IMG/VR virus record: IMGVR_UViG_3300028840_002814
Location: 1 to 24,122 of that record
Direction: 5' to 3' (one strand)
DNA: 24,122 nucleotides
DNA from: a virus
Shown: piece after piece, positions 830-16,955 of the stretch
How the letters are laid out: each line of letters starts with the position of its first letter
Position numbering within the stretch: position 1 is the first letter of the stretch
Notes under the pieces: model-generated
Told to the model about the DNA's origin: nothing
The model's input: the letters and a program-made list of their open reading frames with translations, nothing else
The model's database searches: none
Program-made: the position numbers and the translations under genes

Positions 830-1426
830 ATGTTAACGAGACGCGATTTCCTCAAGGGCATACTGGCGACTGCTGGCGCGGTGGCGCTCAAGGGGCCGCT
901 GGCGCTGATTGAGCCTATTCACGGCGCGCACGAATTGACAGCGCAGGAACGGGATGTGGTAGCTGATGTGTTGGGAATACGGCGTCAAGTATGGCCGATA
1001 GCGAAGCCAAGACTCAAGGTACATAGACTGCAAGCCCAGTTGCAGTCTAATAGTGAATTGCAGGGCGATGCAGTGATATCGTGCGGAAGTGCACGTCTTT
1101 GGATGCGTGAGAAAGAGCGCCAATCTTGGGAAGCCTTGGGGGAAGTGGAATCACTACTTGGCTATCCAGTGGAAATGGTAGCAGGGCCAAATGTCGAGAT
1201 AGAGCTAGAACTAGGAAATATCACCGGCTATATTGTGCCGACAGAGTTCAGGGCAGATGTAGTCAAAGAATATGGCAAGCTCATAGCTCGGTTGCCTCCC
1301 TTGTCTTTTACAGGGTCTTGGGAGCCTGTCAAAGCAGCCATAACGCGGACAGAACTTCCAGGTGGTCATGGGAGCATTGGTACGTTCTGGGACTTGACGC
1401 CTCAATGGAGAGGAGACCATCGGTAG
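830..1426 (+). CDS. Tat-exported protein of unknown function (moron candidate)
   Basis: A 198-residue protein that opens with a classic twin-arginine signal: T-R-R-D-F-L-K at residues 3-9, then the hydrophobic stretch GILATAGAVAL and a probable cut near residue 32 (HGA/HE). The Tat pathway carries folded proteins across the membrane, so the mature part of about 165 residues should act outside the cytoplasm. It contains several charged strands and helices but no motif that I recognise. The start is fixed both by the twin-arginine motif, which must be N-terminal, and by the promoter, whose +1 falls on the ATG. The gene has its own promoter and is followed by a terminator. Its codons look richer in A/T than its neighbours (not counted). 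A phage-borne Tat substrate beside head genes suggests lysogenic conversion, but the function is unknown. Confidence 0.85.
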   Translation: MLTRRDFLKGILATAGAVALKGPLALIEPIHGAHELTAQERDVVADVLGIRRQVWPIAKPRLKVHRLQAQLQSNSELQGDAVISCGSARLWMREKERQSWEALGEVESLLGYPVEMVAGPNVEIELELGNITGYIVPTEFRADVVKEYGKLIARLPPLSFTGSWEPVKAAITRTELPGGHGSIGTFWDLTPQWRGDHR

Positions 1427-1485
1427 CATAGTTTGGCAATAGCATAACCCGTCGGGGCCATCCCTGACGCTGGCTCAGGACATAC

Positions 1486-1521
1486 ACGGGCCGACTTCTT
1501 TATGAGGTCGGCCCGTTTTTT
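1486..1521 (+). terminator. rho-independent terminator
   Basis: A perfect 10-bp stem, ACGGGCCGAC (1486-1495) with GTCGGCCCGT (1507-1516), an 11-base loop, and a run of six T beginning at the last stem base (1516-1521). It lies 60 bases after the stop of the Tat-signal gene and closes that one-gene unit. There is no T-run on the other strand, so it should act on plus-strand transcripts only. Confidence 0.92.
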
Positions 1522-1529
1522 GTTGGGAT

Positions 1530-1727
1530 ATGATGGACAGGCAAACGAAACCGAACAACCTACAACTGGTCGAGGTGCGCTGCGCTCAGTGCCTACAGCC
1601 AACGGACACCATCTGTATGGTGCGCCGGGACGGCAAGCTGGTAGCGCTATGCCCCAAGTGCGCGGTACAAGGCGGGCGGCGCTCCACTGTGGGGCCGACA
1701 GAGTTTAAGGGCGCGGGCGTGGCGTGA
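1530..1727 (+). CDS. small zinc-ribbon protein
   Basis: A 65-residue protein with two CxxC knuckles, C18-A-Q-C21 and C41-P-K-C44, separated by about 20 residues. This is the pattern of a small zinc ribbon. Start ATG 1530 (or 1533) follows a weak GGGA. It begins 9 bases after the terminator. Its 3' end overlaps the 3' end of the convergent nuclease gene by 23 bases. Small zinc ribbons are frequent in phage head regions, but their roles are mostly unknown. A DNA- or protein-binding role is only inferred. Confidence 0.65.
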   Translation: MMDRQTKPNNLQLVEVRCAQCLQPTDTICMVRRDGKLVALCPKCAVQGGRRSTVGPTEFKGAGVA

Positions 1728-2817
1728 GATGTTCGACTATCGCATCCACGCAGACCACAGGAGAGGAGCGAATTTCGTCACCAGTGAATCGAAGGACTAT
1801 CCAGCCCTTGCGCTCAAGGTCAGCGTTCTTGCGTTGGTCACGCTCTTGTACTTCTGGGCTACTGTGCCAATAGGCACCATCGGCCTCGACGGCGAGCTTG
1901 TGGTCGGGAAAAGCGATGTCGATATGCCAGCGCTCAACTTTATATTCGGTTCTGAACAGGACGCCCCTGGCTTCAAGTTCTTGCTGGAGCAGTATTTCTA
2001 TGGACGTTGGTCCATTGTACCGGGCGAAGCAGTTGCGAGAGCAGAATCGCGCAATCCCTTCTCTGCATGGATAGATGGAAAAGACTTTACCGCATATCTC
2101 ACAAGTGGCAGTAGCGCCACTAGTCTTGGCCTGCCAATGGCATTCTTGGGAACAGTATTTGGCATTTTGGGCGCGGAAGTGATGAACAACAAACGCATCG
2201 CCACAGTGTTCGCATATCTTGGTAACGCTGGCGCGCGCTTGGTCATGGCACTCGGTCGAACAATAGCGCCGGTTACTACTGGGATGGACCTGAAAAGATT
2301 GGCCGCAATGTGGGCACGTTCTGGCTGTACGGTGGTAGTGGGGATGGCTCTCGCCCCTCATGCCTATATGTTGACATTCTGCCGAGCAGTAAGTTTTATT
2401 GATTCGTGCGGCGCGGTCAGAAAATGTGTTTCCACACACAGGGCAGGTTTTAGAGATAAGCGGAATGTCATTCATACAATCTTTCGAGCAATATATCCCA
2501 CGCCCCTTGGTCACGCGATTTTGGTCGATGGTGAAAAGCTTGCCGCACCGCTGGCATTTACGGGTAACAGGGCCACCAGTCCAATGCCCGGCATTTGGGC
2601 CTACGCGATATTCATGAGAGCATTTGCGCGAACAAAAGTCACCAGCGTTGTAAATCAGTTCACTTGGACGAACTTCGAAAGATTTGCCGCAATTCTTGCA
2701 GGTGCGCGGAATGCGTTTCTTGCGCGATTCGTAGTGGCAGGCGCGAGAACAGAACTTTTGGGCATTGCCCTTGGAGTAAAAAGACTTGCCGCAGTGTTGG
2801 CAGACTTTTTGAGGCAC
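1705..2817 (-). CDS. zinc-finger array nuclease, Vsr/DUF559-like (probable homing or mobile endonuclease)
   Basis: A 370-residue protein. The start is the GTG at 2817, because GGGAGGA lies 8 bases before it; the open frame continues 54 codons further up but through leader sequence. Seven similar treble-clef fingers (CxxCGxxF...CSxxC) occupy residues 6-263, with first cysteine pairs near 6, 40, 89, 125, 168, 202 and 239. A C-terminal PD-(D/E)xK-like domain follows (about 272-363): D300 in HIDIAF, then the E311-A-D-G-A-Y-W-H318 block, a basic RDQRKNADL helix and GWIVLRF. This is the layout of Vsr and DUF559 proteins and of the related EDxHD homing endonucleases. The fingers probably recognise DNA. 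It is one of only two genes on the minus strand and has its own promoter, which fits a selfish insertion between head genes. A repair or defence role is possible. Confidence 0.88.
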   Translation of the reverse strand: MPQKVCQHCGKSFYSKGNAQKFCSRACHYESRKKRIPRTCKNCGKSFEVRPSELIYNAGDFCSRKCSHEYRVGPNAGHWTGGPVTRKCQRCGKLFTIDQNRVTKGRGIYCSKDCMNDIPLISKTCPVCGNTFSDRAARINKTYCSAECQHIGMRGESHPHYHRTARTCPHCGQSFQVHPSSNRRYCSTECHDQARASVTKICEHCGDAFVVHHFRAQNAKYCSQECHWQAKTSGATATCEICGKVFSIYPCREGIARFCSRNCFARYNGPTSIEILLQQELEARGVLFRTEYKVERWHIDIAFPDHKLAVEADGAYWHSSPEVQERDQRKNADLERKGWIVLRFTGDEIRSSPVVCVDAIVEHLTPRPRP

Positions 2818-2860
2818 AACAAAATCCTCCCGGCTCAGGATAGCTGGCAGATATTTGATG

Positions 2861-2916
2861 GTGGGGGCGGCTCGGTGCCAGTGACCGAGTGTTCGGGTCG
2901 CGTTCCCTAGCCCCAC
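2861..2916 (-). promoter_or_regulatory. foldable 5' leader of the nuclease mRNA
   Basis: The untranslated leader can fold into a three-way junction. A closing stem pairs 2861-2866 (GTGGGG) with 2911-2916 (CCCCAC). A 6-bp hairpin pairs 2871-2876 (CTCGGT) with 2884-2889 (ACCGAG) around a 7-base loop, and a 3-bp stem pairs 2895-2897 with 2905-2907, again with a 7-base loop. It begins about 8 bases after the predicted transcription start and ends about 33 bases before the ribosome binding site. No known RNA class is recognised. The folding is by eye only. Confidence 0.4.
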
Positions 2917-2930
2917 TAATAGTATAACAC

Positions 2931-2936
2931 AAAAGT
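2931..2936 (-). promoter_or_regulatory. probable -10 box of the nuclease promoter
   Basis: On the minus strand, TATACT (2936 down to 2931) is preceded by GT, giving GTTATACT. No good -35 lies at the standard distance; TGGACA (2962 down to 2957) is 20 bases away, which is too far. Predicted transcription start is near 2924, giving a leader of about 107 bases. Confidence 0.45.
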
Positions 2937-2978
2937 CGGATTTTTGCAAGGCTGGATGTCCAGCAAAGGCAGATTCCA

Positions 2979-4529
2979 ATGGAACACAAAACGTTTCCCA
3001 GCATAGGGACCAAGGTCATCGACGCTGACCAAGGTATCGTAGAAGGGGTGATAACTTTATTCGGCGTGTTGGATAGAGGAAATGACATATCGTTCCCCAA
3101 TTCGTTCCGCAAAACTCTGTCTGAGCGTGGTAGTAAAGTGAAGGTGCTGGACTCACACAAAACGGACAGTGTAATGCGCGTCTTAGGCAAGCCCCTGGAG
3201 ATTCGGGAGATGTCGCGGGCTGAATTGCCTCACGCTATTGTAGACCAATATCCAGAGGTTACGGGCGGCGTTTATGCTAAGACTCAATTTTTGATGGATA
3301 CGCCGGAAGGCCGGGGCGCATTTGCACGCATCAAATCAGGCGCGCTTCAAGAGTGGTCATATGGATATGATGCGCTGGATGTAGAACACGCCACTGTCAA
3401 GAATGGAGAGGGCCAAGATGTGCGGGCTAGACTCCTGAAAACGGTCAGGCTCTGGGAGTACTCGCCTGTGCTCTGGGGACTTGTTCCTGGCACGACTGTG
3501 GTGTCTGCCAAGGGCGACAACGGCGACCCCGACAAGGCAGTCGGCGGCGCGGATGCTCTGACGCCTCCTGGCACTGTCTGGCACTGTACCTGTCCCAAAT
3601 GTGGACACGAGTGGAACAGCGATACCAAATGCGCAGAGTCTACTTGCCCTGAGTGTGGGCACGAATTGGGCGGGCGCTCAGCAGGCACGGGTACAGAGGG
3701 CAGACAGATCATCGGGGGCACCGGCGTATCGCTGGCCTCTGACGCTGGACCGGAGGAGGAGAAACCCTGGCGGGCCATCCGTGAGGGTGACAAGTGGCGG
3801 GTATATCAGGTGGACGAGGACGGCAACCCGACCGGCGAACCACTGGGCGAACACGACACCCAGGCTGAGGCGGCTGCACAGGTAAGGGCGCTATATGCCA
3901 ATGAGCCAGAGGCGGGCAAAGTGACTTGGACGGCACGCTACGTGAATGATTTGCCAGACGGGAGTTTTCTCTACGTCGAGAGCGGCGGAGACAAAGACGA
4001 CGAGGGCAAGACGACTCCCCGTAGTCTTCGCCACTTTCCCTACAAGGACGCTGATGGCTCTATCGACCTGCCCCACCTACGTAATGCCATCGCACGCATC
4101 CCACAGAGTAATGCGCCGGGGCTGACCGATGCCAAGAAAACGCAACTACAGGAGCGCGCCCGCCGAATGTTGGAGGACGCACAGAAAGCAGATGCCAAGA
4201 TTGGCCGCGTGCTGGCTGCCCGTAACGCCACGCGCATCGCCAACGCCCTGGCCCGTCTCATCGAAGTGCTAGAGGACGCGGGCGTGGACATTCCGGGCTA
4301 CGGAGAGACAGAAGAAGAGGAAAAGAGCGACCAACCGGCGACCGATGCCGGAGACGATACCGCACCTGCTGAGGCCGCGACAGACGATGCCGCACCCGAG
4401 CAGGCCGCAACTGATGAGGAGGAAACAGACGAGCAGGCCGGGCCGCCCGACGGGACACCCACCTCCGAGGAACTGCTGAAACTCATCGGCGTGGAACAAG
4501 ACGAAATCGCTATACTATTGGAGGTGTAA
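2979..4529 (+). CDS. HK97-type prohead protease with zinc ribbon and acidic scaffold-like C-terminus
   Basis: A 516-residue protein; the protease alone is usually about 200. Residues 1-170 are a U35/S78-type prohead protease: an F-x-V-x-D-R-G-N-D strand turn, catalytic H60 in LDSHKTD, catalytic S127 in EWSYGYD, and the LWEYSPVLWG block. A zinc ribbon follows (C205xxC208...C223xxC226). After a linker, residues 315-400 form a helical domain (DLPDGSFLYVE, then PRSLRHFPYKD and DLPHLRNAIARIP) that is often fused to phage head proteins. The tail from 440 to 495 is acidic and Ala/Glu-rich, as in scaffold regions. The enzyme digests scaffold and capsid N-termini during head maturation. The start has AAAGG at about 9 bases; the capsid gene follows after 3 bases. 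Confidence 0.9.
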   Translation: MEHKTFPSIGTKVIDADQGIVEGVITLFGVLDRGNDISFPNSFRKTLSERGSKVKVLDSHKTDSVMRVLGKPLEIREMSRAELPHAIVDQYPEVTGGVYAKTQFLMDTPEGRGAFARIKSGALQEWSYGYDALDVEHATVKNGEGQDVRARLLKTVRLWEYSPVLWGLVPGTTVVSAKGDNGDPDKAVGGADALTPPGTVWHCTCPKCGHEWNSDTKCAESTCPECGHELGGRSAGTGTEGRQIIGGTGVSLASDAGPEEEKPWRAIREGDKWRVYQVDEDGNPTGEPLGEHDTQAEAAAQVRALYANEPEAGKVTWTARYVNDLPDGSFLYVESGGDKDDEGKTTPRSLRHFPYKDADGSIDLPHLRNAIARIPQSNAPGLTDAKKTQLQERARRMLEDAQKADAKIGRVLAARNATRIANALARLIEVLEDAGVDIPGYGETEEEEKSDQPATDAGDDTAPAEAATDDAAPEQAATDEEETDEQAGPPDGTPTSEELLKLIGVEQDEIAILLEV

Positions 4530-4532
4530 GCG

Positions 4533-5849
4533 ATGAGTGAAATGAAGTGGCAAGAGCGACTTGCCAAAAGCGGTCAACTCTTTGCCCAGGCCAAGGAAAT
4601 CCTGGCGAACGAAGAGGCGACCGCAGAAGACAAGGCCAAACTTGAACCGATGCTGACTGAGGCCCGGCAGCTCAAAGCCGAGGGCGTGCAGCTCAAGGAA
4701 ATCGAGACCAGCGCCGTCGAACTGGAGCAGATGGCCGAAGAGATACAGGCAGAGGCCAAGGCTGATACGCGACCGGCTACTGGGAGCGGGGCGTTCAAGT
4801 CGTGGGGCGAGTTCCTGTATGCCGTGGGTACGTGGCACAAGACCGGGCAAGCCGACAACCGGCTGGTAACATTCTATGAAGACGCACCGAAACAGGGTGC
4901 AGGCCCGTCACAGGGCAAGGATTTGGTGGAAGCCATCGGTGCTTCTGGCGGGTTCCTGGTGCCGACCGAGTACCTGGCCGAACTGCAAGCAGCGCAAGCG
5001 GAGATGGGCATCGTCCGAGGTCGGGCGACCGTTATCCCGATGAGACGCCGACAAATCGACATCCCGGTGCTGGACCAGACTGGCACGACCAGCGGTGTCC
5101 CGCATTGGTTCGGTGGCATGGCGTTTTATTGGGGTGAGGAAGCCACGGAGAAAACCGAGAGCGACCCGTCCTTCCGTAAGATCGCACTCGTGGCGCACAA
5201 GCTCTACGGTTACACGCGCGCGGGTGATGAGCTACTGGACGACAGCGCCATCAGCCTAGAGGCGTTCCTGTCCGGCCCGATGGGCATGGTCGGGGGCGTC
5301 GCGTGGCACGAGGACTATGCATTCATCCAGGGCACCGGCGCGGGCCAACCCCTGGGCGTCATCAACGCGGGCGCGACCATCAACGTAGCGCGTGCAGCAG
5401 CAGGAGCCATCGGATACGCAGACCTAGCCAATATGATGGAGAATTTCTTGCCGTCTGGGCGCGGCGTATGGGTCATCACCCAGAGCGCAATGGCTGACCT
5501 CATTCAGTTGAGCGGGCCAGCGGGAAATGCCAGCTACGTATGGCAGCCCAATGCGCGCGACGGGGTTCCTGGCTATCTGCTGGGATTCCCGGTCATCTGG
5601 AGCGAAAAGTGCCCGCGCATCGGCACGGCGGGCGACGTGATTTTGGCCGACTGGCTGTACTACTTGATCGGCGACCGGCAAGCCACGACGGTGGAAAGCA
5701 CCAAGTTCGACCGCTGGCGCTGGGACGAGACAAGCTGGCGTGTCGTGCATCGCGTTGACGGGCAGCCGTGGTTGAGCGCGCCGCTCACGTATCAGGATGG
5801 CACAACGCAAGTTTCGCCCTTCGTCATACTTGGCGATGTGAGCACCTAG
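4533..5849 (+). CDS. HK97-fold major capsid protein
   Basis: A 438-residue protein behind a strong ribosome binding site (GGAGGTG, about 4519-4525). Residues 5-80 form a Lys/Glu/Ala-rich coiled coil, the delta domain that acts as internal scaffold and is removed by the upstream protease in this family. The capsid core begins near SGGFLVP (138-144) and includes the family-typical GTGAGQPLGVI (267-277). It ends with the P-domain strand region (FDRWRWDETSWRVVHRVDG). It builds the icosahedral shell. Order and spacing with the protease are standard. The exact cleavage site cannot be read. Confidence 0.95.
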   Translation: MSEMKWQERLAKSGQLFAQAKEILANEEATAEDKAKLEPMLTEARQLKAEGVQLKEIETSAVELEQMAEEIQAEAKADTRPATGSGAFKSWGEFLYAVGTWHKTGQADNRLVTFYEDAPKQGAGPSQGKDLVEAIGASGGFLVPTEYLAELQAAQAEMGIVRGRATVIPMRRRQIDIPVLDQTGTTSGVPHWFGGMAFYWGEEATEKTESDPSFRKIALVAHKLYGYTRAGDELLDDSAISLEAFLSGPMGMVGGVAWHEDYAFIQGTGAGQPLGVINAGATINVARAAAGAIGYADLANMMENFLPSGRGVWVITQSAMADLIQLSGPAGNASYVWQPNARDGVPGYLLGFPVIWSEKCPRIGTAGDVILADWLYYLIGDRQATTVESTKFDRWRWDETSWRVVHRVDGQPWLSAPLTYQDGTTQVSPFVILGDVST

Positions 5850-14796: not shown

Positions 14797-15249
14797 CTAT
14801 TCTATAATGATGATGGTTCGGACGGTCTTTTCGCGTATTGGTAGCGTAACCTTGCCACTATCATATTCCTGTATGAAGAGATGTAGGGCATATCGGAGAA
14901 CGCCGTTCAGGGTGACGCTGTGTTCAGCAGCAATGTCTTTGAGGCGCTTATGGGTATCATCGCTCACTCTGTAGGTATGGCGTGGATAAGCCTTATCATA
15001 TGGGGGGACATGGCGAGGGATACGCCTCTTGTGTAGTTTGATGTACTTGCGTTTCTCTGCTAAGGAAGAGAAGAGTTGCCCGCCAGCAACGGAGTTGCAT
15101 ATGCTACAGGCAGCAACCAAGTTGTTGTCCTCGTGTGTCCCTCCGTGGTTCTGGGGGACGATGTGGTCTATTTCTGTAGCTGGGCCGTCGCAATATGCAC
15201 AGATATAGTTGTCTCGCTTAAGTATGCGCTTAACGGGGTATGAACTCAT
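14797..15249 (-). CDS. HNH endonuclease fused to a ribbon-helix-helix domain
   Basis: 150 residues on the minus strand with a perfect AGGAGG 5 bases before the ATG. Residues 8-58 are an HNH nuclease: C17xxC20, E26-I-D28-H29, then an N43 region and C48xxC51-N52. Both zinc-binding CxxC pairs are present. Residues 91-127 (HTYRVSDDTHKRLKDIAAEH, then LNGVLRYALHLFI) form a strand-helix-helix typical of ribbon-helix-helix DNA binders. The HNH cuts DNA and the second domain probably chooses the site. The gene breaks an operon of overlapping plus-strand genes and brings its own promoter, as expected for a free-standing mobile endonuclease. Confidence 0.9.
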   Translation of the reverse strand: MSSYPVKRILKRDNYICAYCDGPATEIDHIVPQNHGGTHEDNNLVAACSICNSVAGGQLFSSLAEKRKYIKLHKRRIPRHVPPYDKAYPRHTYRVSDDTHKRLKDIAAEHSVTLNGVLRYALHLFIQEYDSGKVTLPIREKTVRTIIIIE

Positions 15250-16876: not shown

Positions 16877-16955
16877 GGGCAAGTAGCAAAGCGGCAAATG
16901 CGCCCGGCTGTAAACTGGGTCCAATGGTTCGCAGGTTCGAGTCCTGCCTTGCCCA
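16877..16955 (+). tRNA. tRNA-Tyr (GTA anticodon)
   Basis: A cloverleaf by eye: a perfect 7-bp acceptor stem (GGGCAAG with CTTGCCC), T8-A9, and a 3-bp D stem (GCA/TGC) with GG in the loop. The anticodon stem is CCCGG/CTGGG with one G-T pair, and the loop CTGTAAA gives anticodon GTA. The variable region is 11 bases and could form the short arm CCA/TGG expected of bacterial class II tRNA-Tyr. The T arm is GCAGG-TTCGAGT-CCTGC, and the discriminator is A. CCA is not encoded (ACCT follows), so the host must add it. It lies between two protein genes with its own promoter. Confidence 0.92.

What the first reader, a model, noticed from the sequence alone, without database searches (positions are those of the whole stretch)
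1705..2817. Seven-finger Vsr/DUF559-like nuclease on the opposite strand
Seven similar CxxC...CSxxC fingers followed by a D/E-x-D...WH nuclease domain form a modular DNA-reading array joined to a cutter. Finger number seems expandable by duplication. The gene sits reversed between phage genes with its own promoter, as homing endonucleases do. A long array could give high site specificity.
Basis: partly seen in the sequence, partly recalled or inferred. Interest (0 to 1): 0.62.

Follow-up and report, generated by a model that had tools for sequence, protein, structure and literature searches.

The report
Seven-finger phage homing endonuclease, reverse strand
This phage gene very probably makes a DNA-cutting "homing" enzyme that copies its own gene into related phages; its relatives turn out to be hidden, out of frame or back to front, inside other mobile elements (inteins) in genes for virus particles, an arrangement I found no report of.

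Summary
Window 1705-2817(-) encodes 370 aa with seven CxxC...CxxxC zinc fingers and a C-terminal Vsr/DUF559 nuclease domain. The best solved structure, by sequence and by fold, is homing endonuclease I-Bth0305I (EDxHD family); catalytic positions are intact. It is most likely a free-standing homing endonuclease, reversed within a capsid operon, with its own promoter-like site and RBS. A relative phage (L027) lacks it at this position; distant relatives are presence/absence polymorphic between >99% identical flanks. The protein itself is a new member of a known kind.

The family is less expected. In 13 distinct loci relatives lie out of frame inside inteins: 10 antisense, 3 in the +1 frame, one of these in the terminase intein of this same phage. 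The intein frame stays open across the nuclease gene (0 stops; 7-14 expected in the +1 cases; 16.6 in one AT-rich antisense case). Many members sit in or just after the MuF minor-head gene. The window copy also has an unexpectedly open host-strand frame (0 stops, 5.2 expected, P=0.0035). Hidden endonucleases are known from a phage methylase (PMC11855218); I found no report for inteins.

The parts
1705..2817 (-). Seven-finger EDxHD/Vsr-fold nuclease gene, 370 aa, GTG start
2029..2802 (-). Seven zinc fingers (aa 6-263)
1726..2007 (-). Nuclease domain (aa 271-364); E274, D300, H318 invariant and D327 nearly invariant in 48 relatives
2826..2831 (-). Ribosome-binding site GGGAGG, 8 nt before the GTG
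   Evidence: read from the sequence
2921..2949 (-). Promoter-like site TTGCAA-17-TATACT, with TG before the second hexamer
   Evidence: consensus match only; 4 sites found in the region, 1.3 expected
1729..2910 (+). Host-strand open frame across the whole nuclease gene (393 aa, no known family); starts 1 nt after the stop of the small upstream ORF (TGAgATG)
   Evidence: 0 TTA/CTA/TCA codons, 5.2 expected, P=0.0035
1530..1727 (+). Small zinc-ribbon-like ORF, 65 aa, overlapping the 3' end of the nuclease gene
   Evidence: weak matches
2979..4529 (+). HK97-type prohead protease, next gene on the host strand
4533..5849 (+). Major capsid protein, used to find relatives

Best explanation
It is a free-standing homing endonuclease of the EDxHD (I-Bth0305I, Vsr-fold) family with seven zinc fingers as its DNA-reading arm, carried in reverse in the capsid operon of a tailed phage. 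Inferred cycle: the gene is transcribed from its own promoter; the finger array holds a long target in a conserved head gene of a co-infecting phage (MuF is the best guess for the family, the MuF-protease interval for this copy); the metal-dependent C-terminal domain cuts; repair from the carrier genome copies the cassette with its flanks. Shown here: anatomy, intact catalytic positions, fold, absence from a relative at this position, presence/absence of distant relatives, and the family's placement in or beside the MuF gene. Inferred: cutting, target, and homing of this copy. Because the cassette lies backwards in an essential operon, its codons also leave the host-strand frame open, either to avoid polarity on the capsid genes or as an imprint of an ancestor hidden antisense in an intein; which of these, or chance, is open.
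For: Best structure 3r3p, I-Bth0305I catalytic domain, by sequence (2e-8) and by fold (E 3e-5, TM 0.80 of target). E274, D300, H318 invariant and D327 nearly invariant in 48 relatives. Promoter-like site and RBS. Relative L027 has protease and capsid genes but no nuclease upstream of the protease, and an HNH gene after MuF instead. Camster and Jebeks: 99.7% and 99.1% identical flanks, nuclease body present or absent; Majeke has the host gene uninterrupted. Related nucleases form the endonuclease part of in-frame inteins. In 24 of 32 loci with a recognisable MuF domain the nuclease lies within 250 bp of it or in an intein inside it.
Against: No exact empty site for this copy; the flanks of L027 cannot be aligned at DNA level. 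No cleavage data. The window copy lies 4.4-4.7 kb from its MuF domain, not beside it. The mycobacteriophage case concerns a homologue only ~30% identical, and Jebeks keeps a C-terminal remnant, so that pair may show loss rather than gain.
Confidence: 0.82

Rival explanations
1. A domesticated or decaying endonuclease: once a homing endonuclease, now kept for excluding competing phages or for another phage task, or on its way to loss.
For: Adjacent to essential capsid genes; only one genome lineage of this phage is known here.
Against: Open frame, intact catalytic positions, promoter-like site and RBS.
Confidence: 0.1
2. A defence, restriction or Vsr mismatch-repair enzyme.
For: Same fold as Vsr (1vsr); some relatives sit in DNA methylase genes.
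Against: NCBIfam Vsr score 33.8 against a cut-off of 97.85; best PADLOC match is a homing endonuclease and the other window proteins tested gave no defence system. The methylase-linked relatives interrupt the methylase rather than accompany it.
Confidence: 0.05
3. The + strand frame 1729-2910 is the real gene and the nuclease is an accident of the other strand.
For: The frame is open over 393 aa beyond simple expectation (P=0.0035) and starts 1 nt after the preceding stop.
Against: The + translation matches nothing, whereas the minus strand encodes conserved fingers and a nuclease fold.
Confidence: 0.02

Closest known systems
I-Bth0305I / EDxHD homing endonucleases (Taylor et al. 2011, cited in PMC3943268; Dassa et al. 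2009, cited in PMC12350094)
   [quoted passage not shown] phage-borne
   Different: Seven regular zinc fingers at the N-terminus; free-standing and reversed in a capsid operon
EDxHD/Vsr endonucleases with 3-5 CapR-like repeats in phage group II introns (PMC12350094)
   Same: Repeat array plus C-terminal EDxHD/Vsr-like domain
   Different: Carried in introns; the repeats are described as distantly CapR/DUF723-like; not compared by sequence here
ShiLan domain and other hidden HNH endonucleases (PMC11855218)
   Same: Endonuclease gene out of frame with an open host frame
   Different: HNH enzyme in a methylase, no splicing element; here EDxHD enzymes inside recognisable inteins, ten of them antisense
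Free-standing T4 endonucleases (seg, mob; PMC2988022) and collaborative homing (PMC2814812)
   Same: Cassette between conserved genes; free-standing and splicing forms at one target
   Different: T4 examples are GIY-YIG or HNH enzymes; the splicing partner described for collaborative homing is a group I intron, here an intein
Antisense homing endonuclease genes in nuclear group I introns (PMC9548176; title and abstract only)
   Same: Endonuclease gene antisense to the splicing element that carries it
   Different: An intron need not be translated; an intein must be, so its frame must stay open through the antisense gene

Membership tests
EDxHD (I-Bth0305I-type) homing endonucleases | Vsr-like catalytic fold | tested here: met
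   3r3p first by sequence and by fold
EDxHD (I-Bth0305I-type) homing endonucleases | conserved catalytic residues E, D, H, D | tested here: met
   E274, D300, H318 invariant, D327 nearly invariant in 48; D300 and H318 align with the two Ala of the 3r3p chain; the assignment to the motif letters is my inference
EDxHD (I-Bth0305I-type) homing endonucleases | site-specific cutting of a long target | not testable with these tools
   needs purified protein
homing endonuclease genes | presence/absence at one site in close relatives | tested here: inconclusive
   this copy absent upstream of the protease in L027, but flanks not alignable; clear for distant relatives
intein- or intron-borne homing endonucleases | lies within a splicing element | tested here: not met
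   no Rfam intron in the window; no intein match in the host-strand ORF; met by relatives, not by this copy
Vsr mismatch endonuclease | NCBIfam TIGR00632 curated cut-off | tested here: not met
   33.8 bits against 97.85
HNH endonuclease (phrog_1271) | HNH motif | tested here: not met
   the best stretch lies in the fingers, aa 160-227; no HNH match in Pfam
DUF559 / MTES_1575 (Pfam) | gathering score | tested here: met
   42.1 and 50 bits against 20.6 and 38.2

The most novel reading that the evidence does not exclude
A family of zinc-finger EDxHD homing endonucleases lives hidden inside splicing inteins of phage head, portal and terminase genes, in the +1 frame or on the antisense strand. One stretch of DNA therefore encodes both the intein linker and a separate nuclease, with the intein frame held stop-free by selection. 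Free-standing antisense copies beside the same target gene are the other half of the cycle (collaborative homing for inteins), and the window copy still carries the imprint in its codons.
Probability: 0.6. Interest if true: 0.78.

Novelty: new variant of a known kind. Interest (0 to 1): 0.6.

Why it matters
The window gene alone adds a long, regular finger array to a poorly sampled homing-endonuclease family, which could help in learning how natural zinc-finger arrays read DNA. The family pattern matters more. It suggests a second way in which inteins can carry a mobility gene (a separate, overlapping or antisense gene instead of an in-frame domain), and it gives many natural examples of long overlapping frames kept open by selection. 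It also makes collaborative homing testable for inteins, because free-standing and intein-hidden forms sit in or beside the same gene (MuF). Standard gene callers can miss or misread such genes; one instance is annotated on the opposite strand in a mycobacteriophage record.

Tried and rejected
Recent finger duplication: no tandem DNA repeats, fingers old. Intron context: no Rfam hit for an intron in the window or in the mycobacteriophage loci. Jebeks as a virgin empty site: rejected, because it keeps the last ~46 codons of the nuclease; Majeke is the uninterrupted methylase allele. Defence island: none found. The within-gene codon shuffle has no power for the codon-aligned antisense frame, because the codon set fixes the stop count; I used the codon usage of neighbouring genes instead and checked that A-ending codons elsewhere are used normally (window 32%). 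L228 fails that check, with 5% A-ending codons. My first intein motif missed L158 and L170; they were found by reading the flanks and then supported by Hint matches. A closer relative with an alignable empty site was sought with the capsid protein and the protease and not found. An earlier count gave wrong contig coordinates for L031; the right ones are in this report.

Full report
1. The observation. The protein has seven CxxC...CxxxC fingers; no shuffle of the protein in 20,000 gave more than four. The C-terminus matches MTES_1575 and DUF559 above Pfam's gathering scores and Vsr weakly. Upstream on the minus strand are GGGAGG eight bases before the GTG and TTGCAA-17-TATACT with TG before the second hexamer. 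The open frame runs on to 2979, but GTG 2817 has the RBS.

2. What the protein is. The only clear solved relative by sequence is 3r3p, the catalytic domain of homing endonuclease I-Bth0305I (2e-8). An AlphaFold2 model built on 48 family members (mean pLDDT 87.5) also finds 3r3p first by fold (TM 0.80 on the target); NGO0050 and E. coli Vsr follow as weaker matches to the same domain. E274, D300, G314, Y316, W317 and H318 are invariant, and D327 nearly so, across those 48; D300 and H318 are the two positions that read Ala in the 3r3p chain. The fingers are hairpin-helix units. They are 29-54% identical to one another, and six of the seven score higher against a finger of a homologue than against any finger of the same protein, so the array is old or reshuffled rather than freshly duplicated. 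Finger number in 81 distinct relatives runs from 1 to 7, mode 3.

3. Where it sits. The window is part of a tailed phage. It is identical to a stretch of a 71,162-bp IMG/VR contig over all the sequence compared. On the + strand follow an HK97-type protease and the capsid protein. In the longer contig a MuF-type minor head domain lies 4.4-4.7 kb upstream. A relative with a 66% identical capsid protein (L027) has the protease with the same N-terminus but no nuclease before it; instead an HNH gene follows its MuF gene directly. The noncoding flanks cannot be aligned, so the exact empty site stays unknown.

4. Mobility of the family. In mycobacteriophages the homologue lies backwards in a split DNA methylase gene. 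Camster and Jebeks have flanks 99.7% (1341 bp) and 99.1% (561 bp) identical, and differ by a 704-bp block that holds most of the nuclease; Jebeks keeps about 46 C-terminal codons, so it is likely a deletion scar. Majeke has the methylase uninterrupted. The annotated product in Camster (gp55) is the reading of the opposite strand.

5. Hidden in inteins. Relatives of the window protein are often encoded inside inteins. Nine are in-frame domains, one clade with support 100/99. Thirteen distinct loci are not in frame. In ten the nuclease is antisense to the intein (L003-L006, L007, L143, L153, L158, L163, L168, L170, L191/L230, L224). In three it is in the +1 frame of the same strand (L010, L152, L031). 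Intein or Hint domain matches were obtained for all of these host ORFs, in most cases on both sides of the nuclease region. L031 is the terminase intein of the same phage as the window (contig 1170-3440; nuclease 1894-2703), seen identically in two records; I call the host gene a large terminase from its sequence and position, not from a family match. In the three same-strand cases the intein frame has no stop across the nuclease gene, where 10.2, 14.1 and 7.4 are expected under synonymous shuffling; 0, 0 and 4 of 100,000 shuffles reach zero. In the antisense cases the nuclease uses no TTA, CTA or TCA codon, the codons that would put a stop in the intein frame; for L003, at 32% G+C, 16.6 would be expected from its neighbours' codon usage, P=4e-11. 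For several G+C-rich antisense loci the expectation is only 1-3, so they say little one by one. A recent frameshift or sequencing error would not leave the frame free of stops.

6. The imprint in the window. The window nuclease also has none of these codons among 11 Leu and 27 Ser; 5.2-5.3 are expected from the phage's usage, P=0.0035, though A-ending codons are otherwise used in 32% of the codons counted. Across the family, outside inteins, nucleases reversed relative to their neighbours have 41 such codons against 82 expected, and those in the same direction 286 against 231. So the effect follows orientation; part of it comes from the methylase clade, whose members are related to one another. 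On the + strand the frame restarts one base after the stop of the small upstream ORF (TGAgATG) and ends 68 bases before the protease. Two readings remain: selection against untranslated RNA or polarity upstream of the capsid genes, or an imprint of recent life antisense in an intein. The nearest relatives of the window protein (L142, L144, L146, L008; support 98/84 for the group without L008) have 2, 4, 12 and 0 such codons, so the constraint is not universal among free-standing copies. P=0.0035 for one gene, examined after seeing the pattern in the family, is suggestive only.

7. A likely family target. Of 32 loci with a recognisable MuF domain, 24 have the nuclease within 250 bp of it or in an intein inside it. 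The antisense inteins interrupt MuF within its conserved motif (for example DDRVC|PICAPLDG), and free-standing copies lie just after the MuF stop. This is what collaborative homing (free-standing enzyme plus splicing element at one target, PMC2814812) would produce. The MuF model was built from some of these same loci, so the count describes the set and is not an independent test. The target of the window copy is not known.

8. Prior art. EDxHD enzymes and their long targets: PMC3943268. EDxHD/Vsr enzymes with repeated CapR-like domains in phage group II introns: PMC12350094. Out-of-frame HNH genes hidden in phage methylases, without a splicing element: PMC11855218. Antisense endonuclease genes in group I introns: PMC9548176 (title and abstract only). 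A minor-head-protein intein with a 0.8-kb homing endonuclease behind variable islands: PMC7468147. Ten full-text searches of the open library did not show antisense or out-of-frame endonuclease genes inside inteins; most subscription papers are not covered, so this is not proof of novelty.

9. Verdict. The window gene is a new member of a known kind, in a notable arrangement. The family-level pattern, to which the window's phage contributes one clear case, is a new variant of the intein/homing-endonuclease partnership and deserves the experiments listed.

Noticed in passing
L031 249-2519 and 973-1782 (contig IMGVR_UViG_3300017963_000261, 1170-3440 and 1894-2703), upstream of the window: Terminase-like gene of the same phage is interrupted by an intein, and a second zinc-finger Vsr-type nuclease is encoded in the +1 frame inside that intein.
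   Followed up: yes
L003-L006, L007, L143, L153, L158, L163, L168, L170, L191/L230, L224: Relatives of the window nuclease encoded antisense inside inteins of MuF-like, portal-fusion or other head genes, with the intein frame open throughout.
   Followed up: yes
L010, L152: Nuclease in the +1 frame inside a MuF-type intein; 0 stops in the intein frame against 10-14 expected.
   Followed up: yes
L032 2962-3750 (MW055902, Camster gp55) and related phages: The annotated hypothetical protein is the reading of the strand opposite to the nuclease, which lies in a split DNA methylase gene.
   Followed up: partly
L187, L171, L192, L195, L225, L228, L237, L178, L032: A separate clade of these nucleases with an open antisense frame and no intein; several lie in DNA methylase genes.
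   Followed up: partly
L218, L219, L221, L222: A clade of seven-finger relatives in actinobacterial genome contigs.
   Followed up: no
window 14797-15249 (-): A second reversed nuclease gene: HNH domain with a ribbon-helix-helix-like C-terminus, between + strand genes.
   Followed up: no
L027 268-1008: In the relative phage an HNH endonuclease gene directly follows the MuF gene.
   Followed up: partly
window 16877-16955 (+): A tRNA gene (Rfam, 60 bits).
   Followed up: no
window 830-1426 (+): A phage protein with a TAT-type signal sequence and no other family match.
   Followed up: no
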